64,000 nt of DNA from Pseudomonadota bacterium. GTDB lineage: Bacteria > Bdellovibrionota > UBA1018. A program made the position numbers and the translations under genes. The notes beneath the pieces were generated by a model that worked only from the letters and a program-made list of their open reading frames with translations, was not told the DNA's origin and did no database searches. This document shows positions 3,225-63,901 of the stretch, piece after piece (the first letter of the stretch is position 1; every line of letters starts with the position of its first letter). The stretch lies in the NCBI GenBank assembly GCA_027485695.1, contig JAIXQO010000003.1, forward strand, positions 930,932-994,931. Reading direction: 5' to 3'.

Positions 3225-3253
3225 TTTTGATGGAATCAAATCTAAGCTACGAT
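3225..3253 (+). promoter_or_regulatory. Putative leaderless promoter of the 3260 gene
   Basis: TTTTGA (3225-3230) and TACGAT (3248-3253) are spaced by 17 nt. The ATG at 3260 lies 6 nt after the -10 element, where transcription would start. No Shine-Dalgarno sequence precedes the ATG. The same geometry recurs at other genes in the window. Confidence 0.5.
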
Positions 3254-33708: not shown

Positions 33709-34798
33709 ATCTCGTCTTTTGATGATTGCCGTTTTGGTTGCAGTCTTGAGCCCGGATGCTCGAGCCACGATTCCGCGTTCGCTCTACCAAGCTCCCGAGG
33801 CGATGGCGATGGGGCAGGCGGTAACGAGCTGGATCGATGATCATCAGGCGCTCTGGTACAACCCAGCCGGTGCTGCCGCGTTCGACTCGCTCGAGTGGAG
33901 AATGATGACCCTGGATCTTGGCGCCACTCACGATGTTTACGCATCAAAAGATGCGATTAAAAAACTGAAGAAACCCACCGTTCGTGACGTGAACCAATTC
34001 ATGGGCAAGGACCTTTACATACAAGGGAACGCGGCAACGAGTTTGATACTACCGCAGATCGGTATTGCGGCCATGTATGATGTCCGCGCCGGTGTGACGC
34101 CGACGAACCAAGTGTTTCCGCGCATCGAGTTTGGCTATGTGCGCACGGGAGGTGCGCAGTTGTCTTTCGGGTTTTCATCCAAGGATGGCGGACTCCGTCG
34201 CCGAGGCCGACGGAAAAAAGAAGCGACCGAGAATGAATGGCGATTCGGCGTGGGTGCGAAGTATTTCGTCCGTCGAGGGGAGTCGAAAATCCTGACCGCC
34301 GGCGAGCTTTTCAATTTGAATAAGGAAAACGCGCTCGAGGCGATTCAAGGCAAGGGATCCAGTTACGGCGGCGACCTCGGCGTGCAACGGATTCAGCGCA
34401 TCGACTCGATCACCACTCTCAGTTGGGGCCTGTCTTACTTGAATATCGGTGATCTGGCGTTTGATAACAAGGTCGAGGCCGTGAAATCGAGTCTCAACAC
34501 GGGCGTCGGTGGGCAGTGGGATTTGGGTCTTCCTAAAATCACTGTCGGGTTCGACGTTCATCACTTGCTTCGTTCCGACGATTTCCGTAAGAAAACCCAT
34601 TTCGGCGCGAAACTTAGGCTGCCCATCCTCTCTTTTTATCTCGGACTCAACCAAATGCGACCGACGTTTGGTGCATCGGTCGACGTCTGGCTCGTTCGCG
34701 TCTCTGCCGTGAGTTACAACGAAGAACTCGGCGAGCTCTATGGCGCCAATACGTCGAGGCGTTATCTCACGCGCGTCGAATTCAAACTGGAGTTCTGA
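33698..34798 (+). CDS. Predicted outer membrane beta-barrel (FadL/TraF-like)
   Basis: 366 aa. A signal peptide ends near ARATIP. The N-terminal QAPEAMAMGQAVTSWIDDHQALWYNPAGAA resembles the start of FadL-type and TraF-like barrel proteins (surface Asn-Pro-Ala motif). Repeated amphipathic strands follow, and the protein ends in Phe (VEFKLEF), a barrel-assembly signature. It overlaps the upstream lipoprotein by 11 nt, giving a barrel plus lipoprotein unit. The 3' end overlaps the convergent FAD oxidoreductase by 37 nt. Substrate is unknown. Confidence 0.75.
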   Translation: MVNRSRLLMIAVLVAVLSPDARATIPRSLYQAPEAMAMGQAVTSWIDDHQALWYNPAGAAAFDSLEWRMMTLDLGATHDVYASKDAIKKLKKPTVRDVNQFMGKDLYIQGNAATSLILPQIGIAAMYDVRAGVTPTNQVFPRIEFGYVRTGGAQLSFGFSSKDGGLRRRGRRKKEATENEWRFGVGAKYFVRRGESKILTAGELFNLNKENALEAIQGKGSSYGGDLGVQRIQRIDSITTLSWGLSYLNIGDLAFDNKVEAVKSSLNTGVGGQWDLGLPKITVGFDVHHLLRSDDFRKKTHFGAKLRLPILSFYLGLNQMRPTFGASVDVWLVRVSAVSYNEELGELYGANTSRRYLTRVEFKLEF

Positions 34799-35790
34799 TC
34801 TTGGAGTAGGGCATTTGCGGCTTGATGGCCGGAGCGAAACGCGCTTTCGATTCCTCCATCTTGAAACGTGTCTCCAGCGATGAGCACCGAGAGATCATTT
34901 TTAACGATCATTCGGTGTGTTCCCGGGAGCCGTTGGTGCGGTTCTGAGTACCGCCAGCGATGAAGCGCAGGGGCGACGCCGGGTTCTGATGCGATGGAGT
35001 TTCCGAAAATTTTTTTTGCTTCCGCGATAGTGAAGTCCACGACTTCTTGCTCTGGACGATCGAGCCAAGCTTGAGACGCTGATTCGCTCAGATGAAAAGT
35101 CACCCAGTTTTGCCTGCCCGGAAGCCCTTTGGTGCGTTGATCGTAGATGCCGTCGAAATTTTCATTGGGGGTAAACGCGAATCCCGAGTGCGACTCGATC
35201 AATCGGCGCTCGAATGCGATCAATACCGCGAGGCAAATGCGATAGGTGACTGAGCGGAGTTCTTGGGTGACCGGAGAGGAGCTGAGTTCAGAGGCGTCGA
35301 GCAGTGCGACCGTTTGAGGCATCGGAGGTGTCAGGATCAATGCGGAGGCATAGACCTCGCGGCCCGACTCACATTCCAATTTCCAACGCCTCGGCTCTGG
35401 AGTGGATTCGAATCGAATAACGCGATTTTCGAATTCGATCGGGGCATGCTCGATGGCACACGAGTCCGCTAGGCACTGAGCCAAGTCGCGCATCCCTGTT
35501 TTAAGTGTGTAACGAGATTCACTCGAGTTGTTCGGACTCGGGACAGACTGAATGACCGGAGCGAGGGCCGAAAGGGCATCCCTCCAGCGCGGTTGGTTTT
35601 GGGTGAAGCATTGCGCGCCAAAATCGAGGATTTCGCCGCGGGCACGTCTCGAAGCGATACGTCCACCCACGCCTCGACTTTTTTCAAGTGTGAGAACGCG
35701 GAGTCCCTGCTGGACGAGCAGACGCCGGGCCGACAGTCCGGCGATTCCTGCACCGACAATTGCTACGTCACAAACCTCGATGGGATTCAT
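34762..35790 (-). CDS. FAD-dependent oxidoreductase (renalase/amine-oxidase type)
   Basis: 342 aa. The N-terminal FAD-binding Rossmann motif VAIVGAGIAGLSARRLL is followed by TLEKSRGVGGRIASRR, the typical amine-oxidase/renalase GG-GR signature. A C-terminal LIAGDTFQDGGIESAFRSG gives the second FAD contact. The middle resembles renalase-like NAD(P)/FAD oxidoreductases. It is the third gene of an operon with the azoreductase (23-nt overlap) and the haem-oxygenase-fold gene, downstream of a promoter carrying the 24-bp palindrome. Substrate unknown; the context suggests a prenyl-lipid or quinone reaction. Confidence 0.85.
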   Translation of the reverse strand: MNPIEVCDVAIVGAGIAGLSARRLLVQQGLRVLTLEKSRGVGGRIASRRARGEILDFGAQCFTQNQPRWRDALSALAPVIQSVPSPNNSSESRYTLKTGMRDLAQCLADSCAIEHAPIEFENRVIRFESTPEPRRWKLECESGREVYASALILTPPMPQTVALLDASELSSSPVTQELRSVTYRICLAVLIAFERRLIESHSGFAFTPNENFDGIYDQRTKGLPGRQNWVTFHLSESASQAWLDRPEQEVVDFTIAEAKKIFGNSIASEPGVAPALHRWRYSEPHQRLPGTHRMIVKNDLSVLIAGDTFQDGGIESAFRSGHQAANALLQDQNSSLNSTRVR

Positions 35791-36409
35791 GTGTGGTAGC
35801 CGAGTGGTGTGCGATTAAACGCGTCAGCCGTTCGAGTGCGTTGTCGAGCGATTGAGCGGCGTCGAGCGCAGTCGATTCGGCCGGAATCAGGTGAATCCGC
35901 TTGGAACCCAAGAAGTGGAAGAGCTGTTTCAAATAGGGGCCAGTGTGGTCGAGCATGTGGGTCTCTGGATTACTGTAGGCTCCGCCCGAAGCCGTGACAA
36001 TAAATACCTCCAGGTCAGGATTCAGGAGACCTTCGGGACCATTCGCGCCGTAACGAAACGTCACTCCGACTCGAACGATGTGATCAATCCATGCCTTGAG
36101 TACCGATGGTACGGAGAAATTCCACATCGGGGTGGAAATGACCAAGGTGTCGGCCGCTTGGAGCTCCCCGCAGAGCTGATCTGAGAGCGCGAGCAAGGCA
36201 GTTTGCTCCGGAGACCGAGAATCGGGAGGAGTGAAGAATGCCTGTACCAGCTCTCCCGAGACGTGAGGGAGCGGGGATCGATTGAGATCTCGGATTTGAC
36301 TCGAGAACCCGGATTTTGCGCCGGTCAGCGCTGTTTTCAGGCGTTCGGCAACTGTACGACTTACGGAGTGCTCTCCGCGTGGGCTTGCGTGAATTTCTAG
36401 AAGTTTCAT
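35768..36409 (-). CDS. azoR: FMN-dependent NADH azoreductase/quinone reductase
   Basis: 213 aa from the ATG at 36409; the track start adds 23 residues translated from the upstream gene region. Flavodoxin-like fold: LEIHASPRGEHSVSRTVAERL, the FMN-phosphate loop, PMWNFSVPSVLKAWIDHIVR (highly typical of AzoR) and VTASGGAYSN. AzoR proteins reduce azo dyes in assays but are mainly two-electron quinone reductases. The start overlaps the stop of the 36406 gene by 4 nt. Its presence beside prenyltransferase genes fits quinone redox cycling, which is an inference. Confidence 0.88.
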   Translation of the reverse strand: MKLLEIHASPRGEHSVSRTVAERLKTALTGAKSGFSSQIRDLNRSPLPHVSGELVQAFFTPPDSRSPEQTALLALSDQLCGELQAADTLVISTPMWNFSVPSVLKAWIDHIVRVGVTFRYGANGPEGLLNPDLEVFIVTASGGAYSNPETHMLDHTGPYLKQLFHFLGSKRIHLIPAESTALDAAQSLDNALERLTRLIAHHSATTHESHRGL

Positions 36410-37101
36410 TTTCCGGCTCCCGTCGCGAGTAAGCGTTCCGCCATCGATTCCGATAGCGCATCGACATAAAAACGACACTGTTGTTGAAGTGAAAGATCGC
36501 TCTCCGATACGAAGTGCTTGAGGATGATAAATCCATTCTCTCCATGTTGGATCTCAGCTTCGCCCGAGCGAGATTCGAGCCACTCGGCTTGGTTCGAGTC
36601 CAGACCGTAACGTTCCCGACAGGCGGCGAATAACGGCCCGATCATCCAAGGGACGAGTGATTCGATTCCCACGTTGAGGGCGGCCGTACCGACTTGCCAA
36701 GGCAAGTCCGTACTGTAAATGGCCGAGCGCAGGAGGGCATCGTGCTGAATCCAGTTCGCATGCGGTCGATAGACCCAAGGCGATTTCCCGATGAGTTCCC
36801 TAGGCCCGCCGAAACGATCGACAATACGACCGAGGATATCCGTATCTCCGTCTTTGTCTTCGGCGCGCCCTTGAAGAAGGTCGCCCACCTCGGGAGGACG
36901 TTTTTTCATCAAATGTTCAACATGTTTACCGAAATCAAGGAGGTGCCAGAACAAGCCTGAAAAATATCGTTCGGCCTGGGAGTCGGTCGCGGTTCCGGAT
37001 TTCATCGCGTTCATGAACGGGTGATTCTGAATTTGGTTCCGGCGCGGGAGGATGGTTTCTCGGTAGATTTCTTCGAGCCAACTAGGAAGCGTCGTGGTCA
37101 T
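36406..37101 (-). CDS. Haem-oxygenase-fold iron-containing redox protein (PqqC/TenA/CADD-like)
   Basis: 231 aa, all helical, no signal peptide. FSGLFWHLLDFGKHVEHLM and the late GEAEIQHGENGFIILKHF contain His/Glu residues placed like the metal ligands of haem-oxygenase-like di-iron or PqqC-type oxidases; HPFMNAMKSG near residue 30 is also typical of the family. These enzymes catalyse varied oxidations, such as CADD in aminobenzoate synthesis and PqqC in ring oxidation. First gene of a three-gene operon whose promoter carries the 24-bp palindrome. The exact reaction cannot be assigned. Confidence 0.7.
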   Translation of the reverse strand: MTTTLPSWLEEIYRETILPRRNQIQNHPFMNAMKSGTATDSQAERYFSGLFWHLLDFGKHVEHLMKKRPPEVGDLLQGRAEDKDGDTDILGRIVDRFGGPRELIGKSPWVYRPHANWIQHDALLRSAIYSTDLPWQVGTAALNVGIESLVPWMIGPLFAACRERYGLDSNQAEWLESRSGEAEIQHGENGFIILKHFVSESDLSLQQQCRFYVDALSESMAERLLATGAGK

Positions 37102-37107
37102 GGTTTA

Positions 37108-37136
37108 GATGTAGCGAGTTTCTTTTTGAAGTTCAA
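37108..37136 (-). promoter_or_regulatory. Putative leaderless promoter of the redox operon
   Basis: On the minus strand TTGAAC (37131-37136) and TACATC (37108-37113) are separated by 17 nt, and the ATG at 37101 begins 6 nt after the -10. The -35 element lies inside the palindrome at 37128-37151, so a bound regulator would block polymerase. Confidence 0.6.
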
Positions 37137-37151
37137 TATGTATTAAACTTC
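37128..37151. promoter_or_regulatory. 24-bp operator, copy 1
   Basis: GAAGTTCAA-N6-TTAAACTTC, an inverted repeat with one mismatch between 9-bp arms. It shares its outer arms and 6-nt spacer with copy 2 at 37739-37762 on the other side of the regulator gene. It overlaps the -35 region of the redox operon promoter. Confidence 0.7.
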
Positions 37152-37196
37152 GAAAGAAAGGGGCTCGATCTTTGTTCAAGAATTGTCGAACAAGTG

Positions 37197-37213
37197 TCGA
37201 GGGAGTTCCTCGA
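37197..37213 (-). terminator. Hairpin after the regulator gene
   Basis: TCGAGG-GAGTT-CCTCGA is a perfect 6-bp stem directly after the stop of the regulator gene. No T tract follows on the minus strand, so termination would be weak. Confidence 0.35.
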
Positions 37214-37214
37214 T

Positions 37215-37703
37215 CTAAACTTCGAACAAGGGAGAATCGATGAGGCCCGTCAAAATGGATTCGGTTTCGCCAATGAAGCGTCCCAGCTCCTCGATACGTT
37301 TTGAATCGAGAGTGTTCTTGCCGCTTTTCTCCAGTTTTTTCAGAGAAATATGCGTTTTTTTGATGAGCTGGAGTTCGCGTTTTTTGAGCACGGTCCGAAT
37401 GGCCGAGGCCAGGTTCGGGTTCGGAGCATAGTAGACCGTCCTGCCGGTACCGCGCGCACACTCTTGAATGACATCGAACTGGAGGAGCTCCGGAAGCGCC
37501 AGGCTCACCAGGGCTTTGGAAACCTTAAGTTTCTGAGCGAGTTCGATCGAGGAGAGGGGTTCCTTGTGAATATAGAGGAGCGCCCAGATTCTACCTTGGA
37601 CGTTTTTGAACCCCCAATACTCGATGAATTCTCCGACGTTTTGAACAAAATCCTGGGTTTCCGACGATAAAGATGGAGAATTTGTGCCGCTCTTTTTTGC
37701 CAT
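37215..37703 (-). CDS. GbsR/MarR-like winged-helix repressor
   Basis: 162 aa. FIEYWGFKNVQGRIWALLYIHKEPLSSIELAQKLKVSKALVSLALPELL matches the GbsR-type winged helix (WG-x-GRIxALLY is characteristic), followed by a wing (GTGRTVYYAPNP) and a helical C-terminal dimerisation part. It lies exactly between two operons whose promoters share one 24-bp palindrome, and is divergent from the prenyl-lipid operon, so it is the obvious candidate to bind those sites and autoregulate. The ligand is unknown. GbsR proteins are best known in choline/glycine-betaine control, but many relatives regulate other pathways. Confidence 0.85.
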   Translation of the reverse strand: MAKKSGTNSPSLSSETQDFVQNVGEFIEYWGFKNVQGRIWALLYIHKEPLSSIELAQKLKVSKALVSLALPELLQFDVIQECARGTGRTVYYAPNPNLASAIRTVLKKRELQLIKKTHISLKKLEKSGKNTLDSKRIEELGRFIGETESILTGLIDSPLFEV

Positions 37704-37728
37704 GAAAAGAGCTTAACACAAAACACGT

Positions 37729-37757
37729 TTGAGTTTTCGAAGTTTAACTGTTATTAA
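37729..37757 (+). promoter_or_regulatory. Putative leaderless promoter of the prenyl-lipid operon
   Basis: TTGAGT (37729-37734), 17-nt spacer, TATTAA (37752-37757). The ATG at 37765 begins 7 nt after the -10. The operator at 37739-37762 covers the spacer, the -10 and the start region. Confidence 0.65.
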
Positions 37758-37762
37758 ACTTC
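37739..37762. promoter_or_regulatory. 24-bp operator, copy 2
   Basis: GAAGTTTAA-N6-TTAAACTTC, perfect 9-bp arms. It is placed over the promoter of the polyprenyl synthase gene and within the divergent region shared with the regulator gene. Same consensus as copy 1. Confidence 0.75.
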
Positions 37763-37764
37763 AT

Positions 37765-38679
37765 ATGGAACTTTGGTCTTGGACTCCCACGCCCGACCTG
37801 CCGATCGTCGACGAAGCAGTGAACGATGTGCTGCTCAAGGGCGGCAAAAAGATCCGTCCACTGCTCGTGGAAATGATCGCAACCGGCTTAGGCGTTCCCG
37901 ATGATCAGTGGAAGATTTGCGCGAGATGCGTCGAATGGGCGCATGCGGCGACGCTCTCTCACGATGACGTCATCGACGAATCAAAACTTCGTCGAGATCA
38001 GCCGACGCTGAATGCGGTCGTGGGAAACACGCGTGCCGTGCTTACCGGCGATATTTTGCTTTCGCGCGTAATCGGTGAGCTAGCGGCGCTGGGTAACCTC
38101 GGTGTGCTTCGCGAAATGGCGCTTGCAGTCGAGCACCTGGTGACCGGTGAATGGTTGCAACTCGACGCCCGCTGGAATTTTGAGATTGACCCAGTGGTGC
38201 TCAAGAAAATCGCCGAACTGAAAACGGGTTCGCTCTTGGCTTGGGCGTCGGTGGCTCCGGGCATGCTTCGGGGACTGGAGACGCCGGATCTTGAGGCGCT
38301 GCGAAGTTTTGGAGTTCAGTCAGGGCGCGCGTTTCAGCTGATCGACGATTTGATTGATTTTTTGCCGACGGGTGGAAAGCCTTTTGCCCAAGACCTTCGC
38401 GAAGGATTAGTGAATCAAGCCGCACTACGGGTGTTTTCGCATGATCGAGAATCCGAACGTGTGCTGCGCGCGGCGTTCGGAGAAAAATTCGTACCGGAAC
38501 GGTTTCTTAAGTTCTCGGATCTCGCTTTGAAACGGATGGAGATAGAGCTGAGGTCCGAGGCGGGGTTTCATCTGCAAGAGGCGAGTCGATCGCTTCAGCA
38601 GTTGAAACCCCATTTTGAAAAAAATTCATTCAGACAGCTCAATGAATGGTTACAGCAATGGGAGAAGCGAATCGTATGA
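37765..38679 (+). CDS. Polyprenyl diphosphate synthase (trans-isoprenyl, IspB/HepT type)
   Basis: 304 aa from the ATG at 37765. Condenses isopentenyl diphosphate onto allylic primers. Visible motifs: GGKKIRPLLVEM near residue 27, first Asp-rich motif SHDDVIDESKLRRDQPT (DDxxD) near 75, KTGSL near 160 and second Asp-rich motif FQLIDDLIDFLP (DDxxD) near 200. Chain length cannot be fixed from sequence. First gene of an operon continuing with a UbiA-type prenyltransferase (4-nt overlap), an NTF2-like protein and a UbiB kinase, so its product is probably the prenyl donor for them. Promoter covered by operator copy 2. Confidence 0.9.
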   Translation: MELWSWTPTPDLPIVDEAVNDVLLKGGKKIRPLLVEMIATGLGVPDDQWKICARCVEWAHAATLSHDDVIDESKLRRDQPTLNAVVGNTRAVLTGDILLSRVIGELAALGNLGVLREMALAVEHLVTGEWLQLDARWNFEIDPVVLKKIAELKTGSLLAWASVAPGMLRGLETPDLEALRSFGVQSGRAFQLIDDLIDFLPTGGKPFAQDLREGLVNQAALRVFSHDRESERVLRAAFGEKFVPERFLKFSDLALKRMEIELRSEAGFHLQEASRSLQQLKPHFEKNSFRQLNEWLQQWEKRIV

Positions 38680-39740
38680 ATGTAGGCAAAGAACGTTGGG
38701 AACCGATTCAGTCCCCCGAGGCTCAGGCACTCCTTTGGAACGGTCGATGCCGGGAGAGTGGAGATGACTACCAGGTCATCGCCGAGCAGGTGGTTCGAGA
38801 CCGGGTTCGGTTTCGTTTGGTGCCCAGCCAAGAAATGGAAAAACCGCCCGCGATCGTTCGCTACTGGGCATCGATTCGCGCGATCAGTCTGACGGCGACG
38901 TTTTCTCCGGGGTTGCTCGTTGCGCTCGCGGGTTGGGTGGCAAAACGTGAGTTTCATTTTGGCCTTTGGGCGCTCGCCACGCTAGGCGCCGTTTTGTTCC
39001 AAATCGCGGTGAATACGTGGAACGATGTCGAAGACCATTTGAAGCTCATTGATCTACCGGGCGGACTGGGAGGCAGCGGCGTGATTCAAAAAGGCTGGAT
39101 GACCGCACTTGAAGTGAGGCGTCTGGGTATCGCTGCCCTTGTTTTAGGGATCGCATGTGGCTTACCGGTCGTCTGGATCAATCCGAAACTCATGATCATG
39201 ATCGCTGCAATCGCGCTCGTCGGAACTTGGGGCTACTCGGGCTGGCCATTTCGATTCAAATATCGCGCGGCAGGTGACATCACCGTTGGGGTGCTCTGTG
39301 GGCCAGCCCTGACCGCGGGTTACGCGGTCGCGGCGTTCGGTACGGTCGAGTCGATGGATCTCGTTCTGGGCTGTGTCACTGGTCTATTGGCAATCGGGAT
39401 TCTACACGCGAATAATTTGCACGATATTGAAACGGATCAATCTCGAGGTGGGAAAACTTGGGCATCCGTGATCGGGTTCGGTCGCTCGATCCGATTCTTA
39501 GGCGCGCTCTATGCGATCTCCGCATTTGCAGAGTTCTGGATCTCCGCTCAACTGGGTTGGGCAGTTTTCGGTGCGGCCGTTCTCTCCTCAGTGCTCCTCG
39601 CGCGGTTTTGGTTCAAAGTTCGTCATGCATCCGGACCATGGGACCCAAAAATTCGGTTGATTCGGTTCGAAGCCGCGCAGATGCACCTCGCATGCTGCAT
39701 ACTCTTGGCAGTAGGACTTGCTCTCCAAACAGTTTTTTAG
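38676..39740 (+). CDS. UbiA/MenA-like membrane prenyltransferase
   Basis: 354 aa from the ATG at 38676 that overlaps the previous stop by 4 nt. About 70 soluble N-terminal residues are followed by multiple membrane helices. The prenyl-diphosphate-binding motifs are present: NTWNDVEDHLKLID (NDxxD) and LHANNLHDIETDQSRGGKT (DxxxD). LGGSGVIQKGWMTALEVRR resembles the MenA branch (COG1575), which prenylates dihydroxynaphthoate in menaquinone synthesis. The N-terminal extension is unusual for MenA. It probably attaches the polyprenyl chain made by the upstream synthase to an aromatic ring; the ring substrate is unknown. Confidence 0.85.
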   Translation: MNVGKERWEPIQSPEAQALLWNGRCRESGDDYQVIAEQVVRDRVRFRLVPSQEMEKPPAIVRYWASIRAISLTATFSPGLLVALAGWVAKREFHFGLWALATLGAVLFQIAVNTWNDVEDHLKLIDLPGGLGGSGVIQKGWMTALEVRRLGIAALVLGIACGLPVVWINPKLMIMIAAIALVGTWGYSGWPFRFKYRAAGDITVGVLCGPALTAGYAVAAFGTVESMDLVLGCVTGLLAIGILHANNLHDIETDQSRGGKTWASVIGFGRSIRFLGALYAISAFAEFWISAQLGWAVFGAAVLSSVLLARFWFKVRHASGPWDPKIRLIRFEAAQMHLACCILLAVGLALQTVF

Positions 39741-39756
39741 GCGAAAGGCGTATCAG

Positions 39757-40173
39757 ATGTCGAATTCAGGTTCGAATTTAGCAAAATTGTTTTTGGAAAA
39801 ATTCTACCAGGCGATCGATTCCCGTGAACCCGCGCGATTCTCTGAGTTTTTTGCGGAGGACGGCGAGTTCATATTCGGAAACTATCCGGCCTCTCGGGGC
39901 CGCGCCGAGATCGAGGCGGCAGCTCAAGGCGTGTTTACCGCGGTCGACGATATTCGCCACGAGCTCAAGACTTACTCCGCCGACCCAAGCGGGCGACTCC
40001 TGATGGAAGGACAAGTCTACTACCGCAAGAAAAACGGAGTAGTCATCCAAGTCCCGTTCGCCTGCGGTATGACGCTGGACTCGCAGCTAAAAGAAGTGAA
40101 TGGCAGCCTCGCGCCCGCGAGAGTGCGCCATTATCAAGCTTATGTGGATCTCGCGCCGCTTTGGAGCGGGTGA
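39757..40173 (+). CDS. NTF2/SnoaL-like protein
   Basis: 138 aa from the ATG at 39757 (GAAAGG upstream). The cone-shaped NTF2 fold is suggested by FLEKFYQAIDSREPARFSEFFAEDGEFIFG, an Ala/Glu-rich helix (GRAEIEAAAQGVFTAVDDI) and the closing strands VRHYQAYVDLAP. Proteins of this fold act as cyclases, isomerases or ligand binders. It is placed between the prenyltransferase and the UbiB kinase (gaps of 16 and 9 nt), so a role on the prenylated product is likely but unproven. Confidence 0.75.
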   Translation: MSNSGSNLAKLFLEKFYQAIDSREPARFSEFFAEDGEFIFGNYPASRGRAEIEAAAQGVFTAVDDIRHELKTYSADPSGRLLMEGQVYYRKKNGVVIQVPFACGMTLDSQLKEVNGSLAPARVRHYQAYVDLAPLWSG

Positions 40174-41498: not shown

Positions 41499-42749
41499 AT
41501 GAAAACGTTTTGTCTGTTTTTGATTTTGCAGTTTTTCTATATTCCGATTTCTCAAGCGACCGTTGGCATTCAACTCGAGTCACCTTCGGCAGTCGGACTT
41601 GGTCGGGCTGGTAGCTCGGGGGCGAGTCGGGATTCCGTCGTCGAGGCATTGGGTACGAATCCGAGTTTAGTTTTTTCGCCGGAGCGGAATCGGCAAATGG
41701 AAATCGGTTTCGGCACGCTCTTCCTGAACGTCGAGGCAAAAAATGGGCAGTCCGCGCCGTTCGGTGGGACGAACCAGTTTCTCTCGAGTTCGAAATCCAA
41801 CGCTTGGGTCGGATCTTTTGGGTATTCGCAAAACCTTTCTGATCGTTGGTCGATCGGAGCAGGGATGCTGCCAGAGGCGGGATTGACCTCGGATTTCGGC
41901 AAAAAGACCGAACTCCTGGAGCTAGCGCCTGAGCTTGCGTTTCTCAAGATTCCCGTCGCCGTCGCCTACCGCACCGAAGAGGGATTTCAGGTGGGATTGG
42001 CACCCGCACTCGGCCTCGCTCAATACGCTACGAACTATTCCAAGACGATCGGTACGCAATCGCAATCGGATCGATCGGCCAAATGGACGACTGGGCTTGG
42101 TCTATCGGCAGGCGCCTCTTGGTTTGGCTCAGAGTGGGGTGTGGGTCTGTCTTGGCGCTCGAAAACGAGTTACTCGCTTCGTGAATTCGCGGATCTTGAT
42201 CAGTTCGGCCCCAATGCGAATGTTGGACTCGATACACTCCCGCTCGATAGTCCGGAACAATGGGGCTTGGGCGTCTCGTGGCAACTCAATGAACAATGGA
42301 GACTCCTCTCGGATCTTAAGCACACTCGGTGGGGTGCGGCGGACGGTTTTCGCGAGTTTGGATGGGATTCTCAGTGGGTGGGTTCTCTTGCGGCTGAGCA
42401 CCGCCGCGACGATTGGACATTTCGTGCAGGCTGGAGTCAGTCGACTCCGGTTTTCCGTTCCGAGTCGGGACGCGCGGGGGCCCAGACAAGAAGAGTGGGC
42501 GATCATACGCTCTATGAATCGAGCATCGATTTGTTCAATGTCATCGGTTACCCGGCGGTACTGACGTCGACGGCCACGGTTGGCGCAACTTGGGATACCG
42601 GCGAGACGGGAAAATGGGATCTGGGAATCGCGCATAGTTTTCAGAAAACGGTCGAGCGTTCGGGAACCGATGCTTATTCTTTGCCCTATCGATATGAGGC
42701 ACGTCTCTCCGTGACTACAGTTCTGGTGGGCTATCGTTACGCTTTTTAG
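41499..42749 (+). CDS. FadL/OmpP1-like outer membrane transporter
   Basis: 416 aa. A signal peptide is followed by QLESPSAVGLGRAGSSGASRDSVVEALGTNPSLV, which matches the N-terminal hatch segment of FadL proteins (GRAGxxxA...NPA type). Long alternating strands follow and the protein ends YRYAF, a barrel end signature. FadL channels admit hydrophobic molecules. GAGG-type ribosome site at 41490 and a 45-nt gap after the UbiB gene suggest it may belong to the same transcript. The 3' end overlaps the convergent Cry-DASH gene by 35 nt. Confidence 0.82.
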   Translation: MKTFCLFLILQFFYIPISQATVGIQLESPSAVGLGRAGSSGASRDSVVEALGTNPSLVFSPERNRQMEIGFGTLFLNVEAKNGQSAPFGGTNQFLSSSKSNAWVGSFGYSQNLSDRWSIGAGMLPEAGLTSDFGKKTELLELAPELAFLKIPVAVAYRTEEGFQVGLAPALGLAQYATNYSKTIGTQSQSDRSAKWTTGLGLSAGASWFGSEWGVGLSWRSKTSYSLREFADLDQFGPNANVGLDTLPLDSPEQWGLGVSWQLNEQWRLLSDLKHTRWGAADGFREFGWDSQWVGSLAAEHRRDDWTFRAGWSQSTPVFRSESGRAGAQTRRVGDHTLYESSIDLFNVIGYPAVLTSTATVGATWDTGETGKWDLGIAHSFQKTVERSGTDAYSLPYRYEARLSVTTVLVGYRYAF

Positions 42750-43971
42750 TCCATCGGTTTCGGTAGGCACGGTCCGGATCATAAAGTTCGGCTTGGCGTT
42801 GGGTTGAGAACACGCGATCGCGTGGATCATTCCCAACGCCGGCCAGATAGGTCCAATTCCCGTAGTTTGATGCGCAATCGTAGTCGATCAGATGTTGCTC
42901 AAAAAATTCAGCGCCGAGTCTCCAATCCACTCGGAGTGATTTCGCAAGATAACTTGCGACATTCTGTCGTCCCCGGTTCGACATCCATCCGGTACTCAAA
43001 AATTCATTCATGTGGGCATTGACGAAGTCGCAGCTCGTCTCGGCTCTGCACCATTTTTCGAAGTCCTCTTGCGAGCCATCTCGGTAGCGCGCGGATCGAA
43101 AAATCGAGGCGCCTTTTTGTACGAGCACTAACCGAAAATATTCCCGCCACAGAATTTCATAGTAAAACGCGCGCGAAGATTTCGTAATGCCTTGTTGTTT
43201 TTCGTCCTCAAGTATTGCTCGAGCGATCTTTGCGGCTGAAACCGAGCCTACAGAGAGCGCCGGAGAAAGTTTGGACGAATCATCCCACTCCAAAAGCCCG
43301 TTGCGTGTCTCGGCATATTGATCCATCAAACGCCGATCCGAGATGTAAGTTTGAAGCCATTCTCTCGCGTGAGCTTCGTGGAGCTGAACCCGGGGATGGA
43401 GATCGCTCGGCACGATTTCGGTTTGTGGATCAAAAATCCAGCTATCCTGGCCCAAATTCGGAACGAGGGGTTTTGGTACTTGATTCGGTACAGGGACCGA
43501 AGCCCAAGGCAATTGGCTTGCTTCCACCAGTTTTCTAAATGCGCTAAAGGTCGAAGGGGTATTTGAAATTTCAAACGGCAGGCCATTCCAATCAAATAGA
43601 TTCGAATCCGAAAAAGTTCGCCAAGCCGTTCCGCTCAGTTGCTCCTGGATTTTCTTCGTCTCCTTTTGTTCTTCAAAACCCGGATCATCGGTCGAGTAGA
43701 TCGTATCCACCGAATGCTCGCGTACGAGTCGGGGTATCATTCGTTTCGCCGGCTCGAGCGTGGCAACGACCTGAAATCCGAGTCCTCGCAATGTTTTGAA
43801 ATAGTGATCGAGTGCGGAGAGTACCGTGCTTCGGCGGAAACGTTTCGCTCGCAAGAATGAGGGGCTTGCACACCAGAGAATCAGACCGGATGACGATTCT
43901 GCCGCAAACGCCGAGAGTGCCCGGTGATCTTCTAACCTAAAATCATTTCTGAGCCAGTAGATTGAATTCAT
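42715..43971 (-). CDS. Cry-DASH type cryptochrome/photolyase
   Basis: 418 aa. Photolyase N-terminal domain (IYWLRNDFRLEDHRAL), FAD-binding C-terminal domain with the strongly diagnostic Cry-DASH block STGWMSNRGRQNVASYLAKS, DWRLGAEFFEQHLIDYD and NYGNWTYLAGVGNDPRDRVF. Cry-DASH proteins repair cyclobutane dimers mainly in single-stranded DNA and may act as light sensors. The short C-terminal tail is normal for bacterial members. The start overlaps the stop of the upstream photolyase by 4 nt, so both are made together. Confidence 0.93.
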   Translation of the reverse strand: MNSIYWLRNDFRLEDHRALSAFAAESSSGLILWCASPSFLRAKRFRRSTVLSALDHYFKTLRGLGFQVVATLEPAKRMIPRLVREHSVDTIYSTDDPGFEEQKETKKIQEQLSGTAWRTFSDSNLFDWNGLPFEISNTPSTFSAFRKLVEASQLPWASVPVPNQVPKPLVPNLGQDSWIFDPQTEIVPSDLHPRVQLHEAHAREWLQTYISDRRLMDQYAETRNGLLEWDDSSKLSPALSVGSVSAAKIARAILEDEKQQGITKSSRAFYYEILWREYFRLVLVQKGASIFRSARYRDGSQEDFEKWCRAETSCDFVNAHMNEFLSTGWMSNRGRQNVASYLAKSLRVDWRLGAEFFEQHLIDYDCASNYGNWTYLAGVGNDPRDRVFSTQRQAELYDPDRAYRNRWTKKRNDSPPEL

Positions 43972-45482
43972 CGAGAGATCGCCTGGGTTTTCTTGAGTGA
44001 ATGCCGTTCGAGCACTCGCTCGGTTTCTTTTTGTACTGATTCTGACTGGAGTCTTTCGAAAATGCGAACTTTCGCCCGGTCGTACGCCGCGCGTGGATCC
44101 ACAATCGGAGCCGGGTAGCTGGTCCCTAGGCGAAATCCACGGGACCCGGCTAAGAGAGGCGGGGTGAGATCGGGCCGGGCGAGGTCGGCTGGGTCAAGAA
44201 CGCGGAGTTCCGGGCAGTATTTCAAAACGAATTTTCCATCCCGGTCCCAGTCGCACTGCTGTTTTTCGGGTGAATAGATTCGAATCGTCTGACCTCCGGT
44301 GACCCCCGATTGCATTTGGAATTGATACCAATGGATTCCTGGTTCGAAATCGAGAAAATAGCGCGCCAGAAAACGTGCGGGACGTTCCCAGTGCAACCAG
44401 AGTTGGTAGGCGGCAAAACTGGCAAGCATCGCCCGCATACGAAAATTGATCCAACCGTTTTGTCGAAGCGCTCGCATGCAAGCATCGATCATCGGAAACC
44501 CTGTTTCTCCTCGGCACCAGGCCTCGAAGTACTCTTCGTTGAATTCAGTTTCGCGAAGCCCATCGAAACCTCGATGGACGTTCCTCCATTCGATTTCGGG
44601 CTCGGTCTCGAGTTTCTGAATGAAATGACATCTCCAGGCCAAGCGACTGGAGAATGCCTGGAGTTGTTTCATTTGATTTTGATCGAGCGGCGACCGGGGA
44701 TCGAGCGTTGCAAGTCGTGATTGAATTCGGTGGTGAATCTCGCGGGCAGAGATGAGTCCCCAGCTGAGATAGGGGCTCAGGCGACTGCTGCTTTGGGTTG
44801 CTAAAAGGGGAGAGGAAATGTGTTTTAAGTATTGGGAACTTCGGGTCTGAAGAAAAGAGTCCAGTGCGAGTTCTGCGCTGTTTCTCGTGGCAAGCGGTAT
44901 GTGTTTGAGCTCCGAGTGAGGTAGCCCGAGTTCTTGAGAGGTGGGGATGGCGAGTTGTCCTTCGCGCGAGAATGGGGAGGACAACGGATGAATGGATCGG
45001 AGTGGACGAGAGATCCATTCGTCTCGGCGCGTTTGCCAGTGATTTCGATTCTGGAGACCGCGAATGACGCCGGTTTGTTGGAACTCTCGCCAAGGAATTC
45101 CTTGTTCTCGGCACCAAGTTTTAACCCGCTTGTCTCGTTGGAATGTCCAGTTCAGACCCGTTTCTTCGTGGCTCAGGAGAGCCTGAGGTGGAAACGTTTT
45201 CTTCAGTTCCTCGAAGACACCTGGAATTTCCCCCTGGAGAACGATCAGCCGCACACCTTTGCGATAGAGCTCTCGGTCAAGATCGATCAGCGCTGATCTC
45301 ACAAACTCATAGTGGCTGGTTTCGAATTCGGGGCTTTTTAGCCATTCGTTTTCGATGACGTAAATAGCCACGCAGGCGCCGCGCGAGCTCCCAAAATACA
45401 ACGCTTCATGATCCTGAATGCGGAGGTCTCGTTTCAGCCAAATCCAGTTGAATCGGCAGGAAGGATCAGTATCGGGAACCAT
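43968..45482 (-). CDS. Cryptochrome/deoxyribodipyrimidine photolyase family protein
   Basis: 504 aa. The photolyase Rossmann-like domain begins FNWIWLKRDLRIQDHEALYF and the FAD domain includes RLSPYLSWGLISAREIHHRI, FPMIDACMRALRQNGWINFRMRAMLASFAAYQLW and GIHWYQFQMQSGVTGGQTIRIYSPEKQ. The last block is typical of a photolyase branch distinct from Cry-DASH and from classical PhrB. Light-driven dimer repair or light sensing is expected. First of two coupled photolyase genes; a 273-nt gap separates its start from phoH. Confidence 0.9.
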   Translation of the reverse strand: MVPDTDPSCRFNWIWLKRDLRIQDHEALYFGSSRGACVAIYVIENEWLKSPEFETSHYEFVRSALIDLDRELYRKGVRLIVLQGEIPGVFEELKKTFPPQALLSHEETGLNWTFQRDKRVKTWCREQGIPWREFQQTGVIRGLQNRNHWQTRRDEWISRPLRSIHPLSSPFSREGQLAIPTSQELGLPHSELKHIPLATRNSAELALDSFLQTRSSQYLKHISSPLLATQSSSRLSPYLSWGLISAREIHHRIQSRLATLDPRSPLDQNQMKQLQAFSSRLAWRCHFIQKLETEPEIEWRNVHRGFDGLRETEFNEEYFEAWCRGETGFPMIDACMRALRQNGWINFRMRAMLASFAAYQLWLHWERPARFLARYFLDFEPGIHWYQFQMQSGVTGGQTIRIYSPEKQQCDWDRDGKFVLKYCPELRVLDPADLARPDLTPPLLAGSRGFRLGTSYPAPIVDPRAAYDRAKVRIFERLQSESVQKETERVLERHSLKKTQAISR

Positions 45483-56314: not shown

Positions 56315-57791
<1,477 letters not shown>

Positions 57792-59088: not shown

Positions 59089-59094
59089 AGTATA
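59089..59094 (-). promoter_or_regulatory. -10 element for paralogue A (leaderless geometry)
   Basis: TATACT on the minus strand ends 6 nt before the ATG at 59082. The -35 region is not close to consensus, so an activator may be needed. The inverted repeat at 59114-59139 lies just upstream. Confidence 0.45.
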
Positions 59095-59187: not shown

Positions 59188-59403
59188 ATGAAAAATGAAA
59201 AAGGCATGACCCTCGTCGAAATCATGATCGCCTCCAGCGTTGCGTTGGTAATCGGTCTTGCGTTCGCCGAGATGAACTCGCAGCAATCCAAAACCCAAAA
59301 GCGCTTGCAGGTCAAAGCGTCGGCGCAGGATTTTCATAACTACGTCCGATTCCTCGTGATCAATACCGCGGTCGATACAGTCAATCAGTCGGCGACCAAT
59401 TGA
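59188..59403 (+). CDS. Very short type IV prepilin-like protein 1
   Basis: 71 aa. The prepilin peptidase site is EKG/MTLVE with Glu at +5, followed by a hydrophobic N-helix (IMIASSVALVIGLAFAEM) and an amphipathic stretch containing SAQDFHNYVRFLV. The protein ends about where a normal pilin's globular domain would begin, so it is only the N-terminal helix plus a short tail. TACACT (59174-59179) is a -10-like element 8 nt upstream. It shares SQDFH-x2-V with the 61452 protein, so the two are paralogues. The Cys-rich gene at 59468 follows in the same direction. Confidence 0.75.
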   Translation: MKNEKGMTLVEIMIASSVALVIGLAFAEMNSQQSKTQKRLQVKASAQDFHNYVRFLVINTAVDTVNQSATN

Positions 59404-59467: not shown

Positions 59468-61447
59468 TTGCTGAAATATTTTTCAATTTCCGGCGTCGTC
59501 CGATCCGCGTTGATTTTCGCGGGGACGGCGTTTTTCGTTGGCGCGCATGCGGATGATGCTTTGAGGCGTTGTTACGCGCCATCGGAGGCCAAGCCTTGTG
59601 TAGAGGTGGGGCGAGGTAAGAAAACGCCTGAACTTCCAGTCTATCCGCAAAACTTCATCGTGAAACGCGGAGGTGCGGTGATTGAGAGTCAGCCGCTAGC
59701 CGGTTGTTACGATCTCAATTTTCGTCGAATTTCGAGCATCCCGGGTGGCGCTGAGAACGGCAAATGCCTGACCGATCGAGCGCCCGTGCGATTTCTGCTC
59801 CGTTATCGTACGACCTGCCCCGAGGGCAAACCTCGTTGTACGTACGGAAGTCGCGTCCAAGTGATTCCCGAGACCAGTCTCGATGGACCTCAGCCATTTG
59901 GAGATGGTTTCAATTTGAATCTCACGCTCGGTCTGCCGATTGTGCTCGGGCAGAGCGTTTCCAGTTTCTCCGCCAAGGACGCTTGCGTTTTTCTGGCGGG
60001 ACAGGCGGGCGGGGGATATGCATTTGACGAAGCTACGCAGACTTGCCAGAAGAAACCCGAAAAGGTCTGCGAGGAATTAGGTTGGACCTACCATCCCACC
60101 CTGCAAACGTGTTTGAGTTATGCTTCGGTTGAGTGCGAATCCGGTTGTGGAGATCCGCTTCAGGCTTGCGAGGGTTATACCTATGCGCCACCCGGTAAGA
60201 GTTGTGTTTGTCGTGGCAAGGCCAAATACCGCGATCTGTTCGGTGCGGCCTGTAGTTGGGTTCACGTCGATTTTTTGATTAACCCGCTTTGTGCCATGGA
60301 TAACGTACGTAACTTCGAGTGGGTTGCTGGCGACTACAGCAAAAACGAGCAAGATGCGTGTTGCCAGAAAGGGAGCTGCGCATCGTCCATCAATAATCGA
60401 GACTACGCAAAAAATCTGGATCTGGGCATTATTGCGCGTCCGTCGATCTCCTCTTATCTGGCTCATGCTCCCGTCGGGGTCGGCAGTCCTGCGCAGAAGT
60501 TCTGTGCGACTCAACCGACATCGCCCGCTTGTCGAAGCGTCGCGAGCGATGGAGGAGTGGATCCGACGGGAAGCGGAACTCCAGGAACGACGCCGACTCC
60601 ATCTTTCACTCCCACACCAACGGCGACTCCCACTTCGGGCGGCTCCGGAAACGGTGATACAGTTGTCCTGGATCCGAAACCTGTCTCCGGTGAACTCAAA
60701 GGTTGCGTTTGTGCACAAGCAGGGCGAGTGGCAGGGGACGGCGGAACGCTTCAGTGTGCAAGCTCACTCGTGAATGATGGAGTGGGTAATGTGCGGGACT
60801 ATGGGGCGATTACCTGCGCGGTGGGCAATCGAGTCTCCGTCGGTGGTGCATCGATCCTTTGTTATGAGTACGCTGATACGGTTGCAAAATGCGCTTACAA
60901 TGGGCCGATGGCGGCGACAGACCCTTCGACCTATCTGGTTTCGCCCAAATCGTGTTACTGCCAAGGCCCTGCGATCGATGATTTACGGTGCGTGTATACG
61001 ATCGAAGAGCGAGTCGGCGGAGTGCTGAAACGATCCTTTAATGAAACTCAGTACTGTCGACGTGGCTCGAATCTCACGCTTTATGGTGCGACGGTGAGTT
61101 GTTCGGCACCAAATACGCAAGATTGGACGAGCTGTAGTGCCGGTACCTCCGGTGGTGTAGTCGTGGGCGATAATCCCCCGAAAACACGCGATTGCAGCTG
61201 TTATCGTGAAGGCTCGATGGGCGGAGTTTGCGGCTACGCGAACGATACTGGCGACGGTTGCGACGTGGGAGTCTATGTTTGTGATCAGAGCGCGATGGCT
61301 TGCGCTACAGGGCCTGTGCGTCCCTACTGTGAGAACGGCTATGCGCCGATCAATATTCCGGCACCGGCTTGTTCAGGCGCGGTATCGGGAGGTGGCGGCG
61401 GAGGTTCAGGTGGCGGTGGGGCCCAAGAAGTCGAGCAATCGCTCTGA
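59468..61447 (+). CDS. Cys-rich exported protein, paralogue B (long form)
   Basis: 659 aa from a TTG at 59468, with GGGGGAG 9 nt upstream and a signal peptide from residue 2 (SALIFAGTAFFVGAHADD). The first 270 residues follow the shared pattern (AGCYDLNFRRI, CLTDRAPVRFLL, YAFDEATQTCQKKPEKVCEE, CVCRGK). A Pro/Thr/Gly linker (TPGTTPTPSFTPTPTATPT) leads to a C-terminal region of repeated Cys motifs (GCVCAQAG, KSCYCQGPA, RDCSCYREG) and a Gly tail. The linker and Cys repeats recall secreted or surface proteins. It lies 64 nt after prepilin-like protein 1. Function is unknown. Confidence 0.75.
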   Translation: MLKYFSISGVVRSALIFAGTAFFVGAHADDALRRCYAPSEAKPCVEVGRGKKTPELPVYPQNFIVKRGGAVIESQPLAGCYDLNFRRISSIPGGAENGKCLTDRAPVRFLLRYRTTCPEGKPRCTYGSRVQVIPETSLDGPQPFGDGFNLNLTLGLPIVLGQSVSSFSAKDACVFLAGQAGGGYAFDEATQTCQKKPEKVCEELGWTYHPTLQTCLSYASVECESGCGDPLQACEGYTYAPPGKSCVCRGKAKYRDLFGAACSWVHVDFLINPLCAMDNVRNFEWVAGDYSKNEQDACCQKGSCASSINNRDYAKNLDLGIIARPSISSYLAHAPVGVGSPAQKFCATQPTSPACRSVASDGGVDPTGSGTPGTTPTPSFTPTPTATPTSGGSGNGDTVVLDPKPVSGELKGCVCAQAGRVAGDGGTLQCASSLVNDGVGNVRDYGAITCAVGNRVSVGGASILCYEYADTVAKCAYNGPMAATDPSTYLVSPKSCYCQGPAIDDLRCVYTIEERVGGVLKRSFNETQYCRRGSNLTLYGATVSCSAPNTQDWTSCSAGTSGGVVVGDNPPKTRDCSCYREGSMGGVCGYANDTGDGCDVGVYVCDQSAMACATGPVRPYCENGYAPINIPAPACSGAVSGGGGGGSGGGGAQEVEQSL

Positions 61448-61451
61448 ATCC

Positions 61452-61697
61452 TTAGTTTCCGCCTCCGGGATTTGTCGGCGCCTGCAAGATCTCCGTGGCT
61501 CGTTGATTCAAGATGGCTTCGACCTTTTTATGAAAATCCTGCGAGTTCGAGCGGACCTGGGTCGCGCGCTGCTGATTGGCGAAATAGGTGTTGAGCGAGA
61601 GGAACCCCAGAATCACGACTGCCGCGATGGCGCCGGTAACGAGGCCTTCTAAGAGCGTGAATCCTGCGACGTTTCTCAAACGAGAGCGATTTCCCAT
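61452..61697 (-). CDS. Very short type IV prepilin-like protein 2
   Basis: 81 aa. The cleavage motif is VAG/FTLLE with Glu at +5, then a hydrophobic helix (GAIAAVVILGFLSLNTYF), then SNSQDFHKKVEAIL, matching the SAQDFHNYV segment of prepilin-like protein 1. It ends in a short Gly-rich tail (TNPGGGN) with no globular domain. Convergent with paralogue B (4 nt apart) and divergent from paralogue C. Confidence 0.78.
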   Translation of the reverse strand: MGNRSRLRNVAGFTLLEGLVTGAIAAVVILGFLSLNTYFANQQRATQVRSNSQDFHKKVEAILNQRATEILQAPTNPGGGN

Positions 61698-61703
61698 ACT
61701 CTT

Positions 61704-61731
61704 AGTGTAAACCGTTTTTTTTCCGACGCAA
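61704..61731 (-). promoter_or_regulatory. Putative leaderless promoter of prepilin-like protein 2
   Basis: On the minus strand TTGCGT (61726-61731), 16-nt spacer, TACACT (61704-61709), with the ATG at 61697 6 nt after the -10. No Shine-Dalgarno sequence. Confidence 0.5.
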
Positions 61732-63050: not shown

Positions 63051-63079
63051 TTGAGATTATTACACGACATAAGTATAAA
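63051..63079 (+). promoter_or_regulatory. Near-consensus leaderless promoter of the second TIGR02147 gene
   Basis: TTGAGA (63051-63056), 17-nt spacer, TATAAA (63074-63079); the ATG at 63086 begins 6 nt after the -10. This is the clearest example of the geometry found at several genes in the window. Confidence 0.75.
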
Positions 63080-63085
63080 TTGCGC

Positions 63086-63901
63086 ATGATGAGCGAATAC
63101 GCCTCGCATGCCGCGATCGATGAAAACGCGAACTCCACTTCGAACGTACTCTCGAGTATTTTCGAGCGGAAACGCAAAAAAAACCGCAGCTACAGCCTTC
63201 GCGCCTTTGCGCGAGATCTGAAGCTCTCTCCCGGTGCCATCAGTCAGATTCTTTCGGGGCGCCGACGCCTCACTTTTCGCACGGCTTCGCAAATTCTTCG
63301 CCGAAGCAATCTGGACACTGAGTCCCGTTCTGAAATTCAATCGTACTTCTTGGGTAATGCCGGCTCTGTCATCGCACCGGGCATCATTGATATTGAGCAG
63401 GACGATGGCCTCAATTATGACATTTCTCCCGATGTGTTTTCGGTGATCGCCGATTGGTACCACTACGCGATTCTGGAAATGGCGGCGATGGAAGGTTGCG
63501 AAGATGATCCGAAACAACTCGGTCAACGCATCGGAGTGTCTTCGGACCGAATCAAGCGGGCGATTGATCGTTTAGTGTCCTTGGGGCTACTTAAGAAGAA
63601 AGACGGCTATCTCCTCAAGACGCGCAAAAAAGTCTCTACATTTGTTTCTTATGGAGCGACCACTTCGAACCCATTAAAAGAGCGTCAGAAGCAAATTCTC
63701 GCGCTATCGAAGCGCTCCCTGATGAGGGACCCGATCGAAAAACGCGTTCACGCTGCATATACGCTTTCAATCAGTGAGGCACAAATCCCTGCACTACGCG
63801 CGAGAATTTCAGAAATTTTTGATGAATTCGTTCAGATCGGTTGCGGTGAGAACGAAAAAATTTACGAAGCGATGATTAACCTGATTCCGTTGGAGAAATA
63901 A
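63086..63901 (+). CDS. TIGR02147/DUF4423-family regulator, second copy
   Basis: 271 aa from the ATG at 63086 (a second ATG follows at 63089); the track start at 62993 adds 31 residues translated from the promoter region. N-terminal HTH NRSYSLRAFARDLKLSPGAISQILSGRRRLT is the family's opening domain, followed by DVFSVIADWYHYAILEMAAM and a winged helix (QRIGVSSDRIKRAIDRLVSLGLL) of the DUF4423 domain. It is followed after 1 nt by the start of an exported-protein gene with its own GGAG site, repeating the arrangement at 22702-24941. Confidence 0.88.
   Translation: MMSEYASHAAIDENANSTSNVLSSIFERKRKKNRSYSLRAFARDLKLSPGAISQILSGRRRLTFRTASQILRRSNLDTESRSEIQSYFLGNAGSVIAPGIIDIEQDDGLNYDISPDVFSVIADWYHYAILEMAAMEGCEDDPKQLGQRIGVSSDRIKRAIDRLVSLGLLKKKDGYLLKTRKKVSTFVSYGATTSNPLKERQKQILALSKRSLMRDPIEKRVHAAYTLSISEAQIPALRARISEIFDEFVQIGCGENEKIYEAMINLIPLEK

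What the first reader, a model, noticed from the sequence alone, without database searches (positions are those of the whole stretch)
63051..63088. Recurrent leaderless promoter geometry at accessory genes
At 3260, 37101(-), 37765, 61697(-) and 63086 a -35-like hexamer, a 16-17 nt spacer and a -10 hexamer are followed by the start codon after 6-7 nt, with no Shine-Dalgarno sequence. 59082(-) has a TATACT -10 at the same distance, and eno a similar layout with an 18-nt spacer. Repetition of one exact spacing at unrelated genes argues for real leaderless transcription. Other genes in the window (for example 8123, 50022, 51826) have strong SD sites, so two translation modes coexist.
Basis: seen in the sequence. 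Interest (0 to 1): 0.7.

Follow-up and report, generated by a model that had tools for sequence, protein, structure and literature searches.

The report
Widespread leaderless genes in uncultured Bdellovibrionota
In this uncultured relative of Bdellovibrio many genes seem to be read from messages that begin at, or a few letters before, the start codon, so they are translated without the usual ribosome-docking site; this way of starting is known from other bacteria such as Deinococcus, but I found no report of it for this group.

Summary
The geometry is real and is a genome-wide property, not a coincidence at five genes. In an 864 kb sample (21%) of the genome, with gene starts chosen from coding potential alone, TANNNT starts at -12 or -13 in 53 of 497 genes that lead a transcription unit; background is 6.4 per position, and -11 has one. 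Only 2 of these 53 have a Shine-Dalgarno (SD) motif, against 149 of the other 444. A held-out -35/-10 model scores 117 of 497 leading genes above threshold, against 8.2% of intergenic positions and 3.4% of internal ATGs. E. coli K-12 shows no peak. Four genomes of the order, the window's own included, share it; three other families of the phylum show it weakly or not at all.

Best reading: sigma70-type promoters whose -10 box sits 6-9 nt before the start codon, giving leaderless or nearly leaderless mRNAs beside an SD mode. This is the TA-led architecture known from Deinococcus and Actinobacteria: a new member of a known kind.

Corrections: it is not confined to accessory genes (eno, metG and xseA belong). 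Sites 37101 and 37765 share a 22-bp operator. 59082 has no clear -35. Leaderless status is not conserved between orthologues. No transcription start was measured.

The parts
63051..63079 (+). leaderless-type promoter of the TIGR02147 regulator gene: -35 TTGAGA 63051-63056, 17-nt spacer, -10 TATAAA 63074-63079, then 6 nt to ATG 63086
   Evidence: score 3.8; held-out 4.1
63086..63901 (+). TIGR02147 family (HTH + DUF4423) regulator, no SD
   Evidence: TIGR02147 93 bits, cut-off 50; DUF4423 2e-24
3226..3253 (+). promoter-like site TTTGAT-16-TACGAT, 6 nt before ATG 3260 (start not secure; coding-based start 3290)
37108..37136 (-). promoter of 37101(-): -35 TTGAAC 37131-37136, -10 TACATC 37108-37113, 6 nt to ATG
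   Evidence: 3.4; 3.8
37129..37150 (.). palindromic operator-like AAGTTCAATATGTATTAAACTT overlapping the -35 of 37101(-)
   Evidence: the core occurs twice in the whole genome, both here
37710..37715 (-). -10 TAAGCT, 6 nt before ATG 37703(-) of the winged-helix regulator gene (no clear -35)
   Evidence: 2.8; held-out 1.9
37729..37757 (+). promoter of 37765: -35 TTGAGT 37729-37734, -10 TATTAA 37752-37757, 7 nt to ATG
   Evidence: kept in G053, L240
37740..37761 (.). second palindromic operator-like AAGTTTAACTGTTATTAAACTT, overlapping the -10 of 37765
61704..61731 (-). promoter of 61697(-): TTGCGT-16-TACACT, 6 nt to ATG of a small prepilin-like gene
   Evidence: (4.8)
59089..59094 (-). TATACT, 6 nt before ATG 59082(-); no clear -35, GTG 59133 is an alternative start
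   Evidence: 5.4; N-methylation motif at residues 1-25 supports the start
56423..56452 (+). eno promoter-like TAGACA-18-TAATCT, 7 nt to ATG 56460
   Evidence: 4.9; 4.3
   Evidence: 6.8
   Evidence: 6.1

Best explanation
Many transcription-unit-leading genes of this bacterium have a sigma70-type promoter (TTG... -35, 16-18 nt, G-n-TANNNT -10) placed so that transcription starts at the start codon or a few nucleotides before it. Their mRNAs are leaderless or nearly so, and are presumably initiated by ribosomes that bind the 5'-terminal AUG (70S/IF2 route, established in other bacteria). SD-led initiation serves many of the rest, above all genes inside operons. The promoter geometry and its mutual exclusion with SD are shown. 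The TSS position follows from standard sigma70 spacing. The translation route is inferred from other organisms.
For:: in 864 kb of the own genome TANNNT starts at -12 in 28 and at -13 in 25 of 497 leading genes against 6.37 per position (p 2e-10 for -12), at -11 in 1; only 2 of these 53 have an SD motif against 149 of 444 (p 8e-7). Starts came from a coding-only caller, so no upstream signal was used. TTG lies at spacers 16-18 in 10 of 28 and 5 of 25 of these sites and is rare at other spacers; G two bases before the T in 49%; an unsupervised two-box fit, started from a generic sigma70 matrix and a flat position prior over -60..-6, keeps a TTGA-17-TANAAT-like motif with its mass at -15..-12; with each contig block held out, 117 of 497 starts score >2 against 8.2% of 744 intergenic positions and 3.4% of 2712 internal ATGs; SD in 8 of 117 against 119 of 272 with score 0 or less; no peak at the next in-frame ATG (457 genes) or the nearest upstream ATG (355); peaks also in G002, G014 and G030 of the order; none in E. 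coli K-12 (0 of 106 at -12); prepilin-type N-termini independently support the starts of 59188 and 61697.
Against: No TSS, ribosome profiling or proteomic data. Deinococcus deserti, meant as positive control, gave only 4 at -12 against 0.86 (p 0.011) in 111 genes, so the test underestimates or the plasmid is atypical. Leaderless status is not conserved: of 19 reciprocal-best-hit pairs in which the own gene is classed leaderless by the fit, 4 have a leaderless-type partner, against 15 of 110 over all pairs; only a few of 30 eno loci of the order have TANNNT at -12..-15 of a plausible start. ATG is not clearly preferred over the SD class (0.91 against 0.88). A raw scan of hexamer-to-ATG gaps without gene models showed no clear peak. 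The shoulder at -14/-15 means that part of the set has leaders of a few nucleotides rather than none.
Confidence: 0.88

Rival explanations
1. The -10-like boxes mark promoters, but the real start codon lies downstream of the assumed one, so the genes have ordinary leaders.
For: The coding-only caller can place starts too far upstream; 3260 (3290 preferred) and 59082 (59133 preferred) disagree between reader and caller.
Against: Misplaced starts would blur the peak, yet it sits at -12/-13 with one gene at -11. Next in-frame ATGs show no peak. Prepilin-type motifs support two starts.
Confidence: 0.06
2. The TA-rich signal is not a promoter but an A/T-rich unstructured or S1-binding stretch that helps SD-free initiation on leadered mRNAs.
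For: Nakagawa 2017 (PMC5397173, passages) warns that AT bias at -20 to -10 can reflect S1 binding. Leading genes with neither signal are the largest class here (189 of 497).
Against: The signal is a positioned TANNNT hexamer with a -35 TTG at 16-18 nt and a G at the extended -10 position, not a diffuse A/T rise; TTG at spacers 16-18 occurs in 15 of 53 of these sites against 20 hits for 264 TANNNT at -65..-25 of the same genes.
Confidence: 0.05
3. Chance plus selective reading: the first reader picked favourable sites.
For: Single sites are weak; only 3 of 6 match strict TANNNT at -12.
Against: Genome-wide tests with held-out models and matched nulls.
Confidence: 0.01

Closest known systems
TA-led (leaderless) genes of bacteria, Zheng et al. 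2011 (PMC3160421, passages read)
   Same: TANNNT about 12 bp before the start codon in part of the genes of a genome, set apart from SD-led genes; delta-Proteobacteria listed as 8 of 33 genomes with 5.7-20.6% leaderless genes
   Different: Bdellovibrio does not occur in its main text (term search); the lineage here is an uncultured Bdellovibrionota order; its supplementary genome list was not seen
-10-adjacent-to-ORF expression of Deinococcus-Thermus (PMC12340547, outline and first part of Results read)
   Same: TANNNT 6-7 bp before the ORF, TACACT most frequent there and common here, an SD class beside it
   Different: there promoter function was tested with reporters and about a third of genes have it; here sequence evidence only, a clear -35 TTG, and perhaps 15-25% of leading genes
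Leaderless transcriptome of mycobacteria (PMC3898074, PMC4633059; search listings only)
   Same: mixed leaderless and SD genome
   Different: TSS and ribosome-profiling evidence exists there (titles and abstract beginnings seen)
Bdellovibrio bacteriovorus attack-phase promoter map (PMC3627812, passages read)
   Same: same phylum, TSS-mapped
   Different: two thirds of its attack-phase promoters are FliA-type; it is not among the papers that hold both leaderless and Bdellovibrio. The genomes sampled from other families of the phylum show a weak peak or none

Membership tests
bacterial leaderless (TA-led) genes | TANNNT-type -10 about 12 nt before the start codon, in excess of background | tested here: met
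bacterial leaderless (TA-led) genes | no SD motif in the same genes | tested here: met
   2 of 53 against 149 of 444; 8 of 117 against 119 of 272
bacterial leaderless (TA-led) genes | sigma70 context (-35 at 16-18 nt) | tested here: met
bacterial leaderless (TA-led) genes | located at genes that lead transcription units | tested here: met
   53 of 497 leading against 12 of 246 inner genes at -12/-13; the inner genes still show a small excess (8 at -12 against 1.5)
bacterial leaderless (TA-led) genes | preference for ATG starts | tested here: inconclusive
   ATG in 126 of 138 leaderless-class, 129 of 146 SD-class, 149 of 189 other leading genes
bacterial leaderless (TA-led) genes | transcription start at the start codon | not testable with these tools
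   no RNA data
bacterial leaderless (TA-led) genes | translation by 5'-AUG-binding ribosomes (70S/IF2 route, kasugamycin-insensitive) | not testable with these tools
   needs experiment
TIGR02147 regulators (gene 63086) | score over the curated cut-off | tested here: met
   93 bits, cut-off 50
MarR family (gene 37215-37703) | Pfam MarR score over cut-off | tested here: not met
   MarR 15.9 bits, cut-off 24.6; nearest solved sequence 1ku9 (MJ223), E 1e-9; called a winged-helix regulator here

The most novel reading that the evidence does not exclude
One order of Bdellovibrionota has made leaderless initiation a major mode while three sampled other families of the phylum have little or none. Genes cross between leaderless and SD-led states under kept transcriptional control: the 37765 gene keeps its operator but is leaderless in two genomes and SD-led in two others. 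Closely spaced divergent gene pairs carry back-to-back leaderless promoters. The two modes may let the cell shift its proteome by changing ribosome or initiation-factor state.
Probability: 0.2. Interest if true: 0.6.

Novelty: new member of a known kind. Interest (0 to 1): 0.38.

Why it matters
It adds an uncultured Bdellovibrionota order to the bacteria with a large leaderless gene class and suggests that the trait varies between families of one phylum. It has a practical side: gene finders that expect SD sites may misplace many starts here. The operator-sharing 37765 genes give a natural case in which promoter control is kept while the translation mode changes, useful for asking what drives gain and loss of leaders.

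Tried and rejected
Raw hexamer-to-ATG gap counts without gene models and a whole-genome TACACT...ATG pattern count (157 matches against 182 for the reversed control) were too diluted to be informative. A one-box motif search found a -35-like motif rather than the -10 in the own genome and no clear promoter motif elsewhere.

eno as a conserved case: rejected. Few of 30 loci of the order have TANNNT at -12..-15 of a plausible start, and several have SD.

TIGR02147 as a family that is leaderless throughout: not supported. A first set of 36 scored loci (37 located of 40, with repeats of the same gene in it) looked strong (p 1e-5). With duplicates removed and phylum-level loci added, 32 of 81 against 17 of 80 neighbour genes score >2 (p 0.016), and most members from other families of the phylum score low.

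Leaderless genes as accessory genes: rejected. The fraction with a relative in the G002/G014 samples is 26 of 138 leaderless-class against 35 of 146 SD-class. A 110-gene leaderless set includes eno, metG and xseA (only the top 25 of 153 families shown; gene names given from the Pfam families).

SD preference of proteins with hydrophobic N-termini: 77 of 131 SD against 44 of 118 leaderless in the own genome (p 0.0009), not repeated in G002 (p 0.25) or G014 (p 0.82).

Anti-SD of the 16S rRNA: no 16S match in the assembly, not testable. The 36409-37101 protein found no relative in solved structures.

Full report
What was checked. The window lies at G000:C6:930932-994931 of a 4.05 Mb, 9-contig genome. 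59082 has TATACT at the same distance but no clear -35. eno has an 18-nt spacer. The contrast genes 8123, 50022 and 51826 have SD and no promoter at that place.

What organism. The nearest eno genes in named records, 64-66% identical, come from MAGs titled Proteobacteria, Deltaproteobacteria, Oligoflexia and Bdellovibrionota bacterium. Four of these loci are identical to loci of genomes of the window's own family or order (: L043 with L223 of G002, L042 with L233 of G046, L041 with L230 of G018, L044 with L226 of G016). The window thus probably belongs to an uncultured order within Bdellovibrionota, with Oligoflexia in one title. The placement rests on record titles, not on a tree.

Genome-wide test. 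A simple gene caller based on codon periodicity, which never looks upstream, gave 752 genes, 497 of them leading (divergent neighbour, or more than 40 nt from a co-directed one) and 246 inner; 9 at stretch ends were left out. TANNNT starts at -12 in 28, -13 in 25, -14 in 17, -15 in 19 and -11 in 1 of the leading genes; the mean over -94..-25 is 6.37. SD is found in 2 of the 53 genes with TANNNT at -12/-13 and in 149 of the 444 others (p 8e-7). TTG is found at spacers 16-18 for 10 of 28 and 5 of 25 sites. Pseudo-starts in the same genes (457 next in-frame ATGs, 355 nearest upstream ATGs) show no peak.

Size of the class. The strict hexamer gives an excess of about 40 of 497 genes (8%) at -12/-13 and about 32 more at -17..-14 (from the counts). 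A held-out -35/-10 model, each contig block left out in turn, finds 117 of 497 leading starts above score 2, against 8.2% of 744 intergenic positions and 3.4% of 2712 internal ATGs: an excess of 15% over the stricter null. A free two-box fit puts 144 of 497 at -12/-13, but such fits inflate. I take 15-25% of leading genes as the likely range. Offsets -12 and -13 place the transcription start on the A of ATG by ordinary sigma70 spacing; -14 and -15 imply leaders of one to a few nucleotides.

Controls and relatives. Same caller and test: E. coli K-12, 200 kb, 0 at -12 against 2.26 (106 leading genes); D. deserti plasmid 3, 200 kb, 4 against 0.86 (111 genes), weaker than hoped; G002 (same family) 10 against 1.54; G014 (same order) 12 against 4.27. 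G030 (same order, another family) has 16 at -12/-13 against 2.8 expected (p 4e-8). Three other families of the phylum: G096 8 against 3.9 (p 0.046), G061 13 against 11.1, G057 7 against 5.6. So the trait is clear in the order and weak or absent in the other families sampled, one genome each.

Which genes. The leaderless class is not poorer in genes with relatives and includes housekeeping genes: eno, metG, exonuclease VII; also Fur-type, LysR-type and response regulators, GreA/B-like factors and TIGR02147/DUF4423 regulators, two members each. The SD set shows ribosomal protein L1 and an EF-Tu-type GTPase among its top families. Two small genes in the window, 59188 (MKNEKGMTLVE...) and 61697(-) (MGNRSRLRNVAGFTLLE...), begin with prepilin-type N-termini, which supports their start codons independently.

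The 37-kb locus. Sites 37101 and 37765 share the palindrome AAGTTYAAN6TTRAACTT, which overlaps the -35 of one and the -10 of the other; its core occurs nowhere else in the genome. Between them lies a winged-helix regulator gene (37215-37703), itself with TAAGCT at -12. The operator is also present by the polyprenyl synthetase gene in G053 (L240), G044 (L251) and G004 (L245). In G053 the promoter TTGATC-17-TATTAA stands 6 nt before ATG; in G044, and with a similar palindrome in G042 (L254), the orthologue has an SD-bearing leader instead. This is one case of kept transcriptional control with a changed translation mode.

Divergent pairs. Of 127 divergent pairs in the own genome, 25 are 60-99 bp apart. 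TANNNT at -15..-12 is found on 0.34 of sides at 40-74 bp, 0.31 at 75-129, 0.21 at 130-249 and 0.12 beyond. Some pairs have leaderless-type promoters on both sides in under 100 bp, including one syntenic with G002. Absence of leaders allows such compact spacing; I did not test whether this is selected.

What speaks against. There is no RNA evidence. Leaderless status is not conserved: 4 of 19 orthologue pairs against 15 of 110 over all pairs, and eno varies. The positive control was weak. Start codon usage does not differ clearly from SD genes.

Literature. TA-led genes with TANNNT about 12 bp before the start are described for 207 of 953 bacterial genomes (PMC3160421, passages) and in detail for Deinococcus (PMC12340547, first part of Results). 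Searches for leaderless with Bdellovibrio, Bdellovibrionota and Oligoflexia returned no paper that, by title, abstract beginning or the passages read, reports this for the phylum; only open-licence papers are in that library, and the supplementary tables of Zheng 2011 were not seen. The finding is therefore a new member of a known kind.

Noticed in passing
34762-40173: Conserved cluster: polyprenyl synthetase (37765), UbiA/MenA-like prenyltransferase (38646), winged-helix regulator (37215-37703), and a protein (36406-37101) of no clear family (weak TENA/THI-4/PqqC hit, E 0.06); relatives 61-65% identical sit next to the synthetase in G044 and G042.
   Followed up: partly
59188-59403 and 61452-61697: Two small genes encoding prepilin-like N-termini, on either side of the large 59468-61447 ORF; possibly a pseudopilin set.
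   Followed up: partly
23967-24941: A second TIGR02147/DUF4423 regulator in the window (Pfam DUF4423 2e-16); the genome has 22 family matches, G002 has 33, and 14 control genomes have none.
   Followed up: partly
L210, L213, L227, L229, L231 (eno upstream): Several eno genes of the order share a TTGcc...cTGTGgAAA-type element about 20-40 nt before ATG, unlike the TANNNT layout of the window; not explained.
   Followed up: no
42715-45482: Two photolyase/cryptochrome-like genes in tandem (the naming of 42715-43971 is recalled from its N-terminus, not from a call; a photolyase FAD-binding domain is seen); 45482(-) has TAGTCT at -12.
   Followed up: no
whole assembly G000: No 16S rRNA match in the 4.05 Mb, 9-contig assembly, so the anti-SD could not be read.
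   Followed up: no
own-genome sample: Proteins with hydrophobic N-termini are more often found in the SD class (77 of 131) than in the leaderless class (44 of 118) in the own genome, but not clearly in two relatives.
   Followed up: partly
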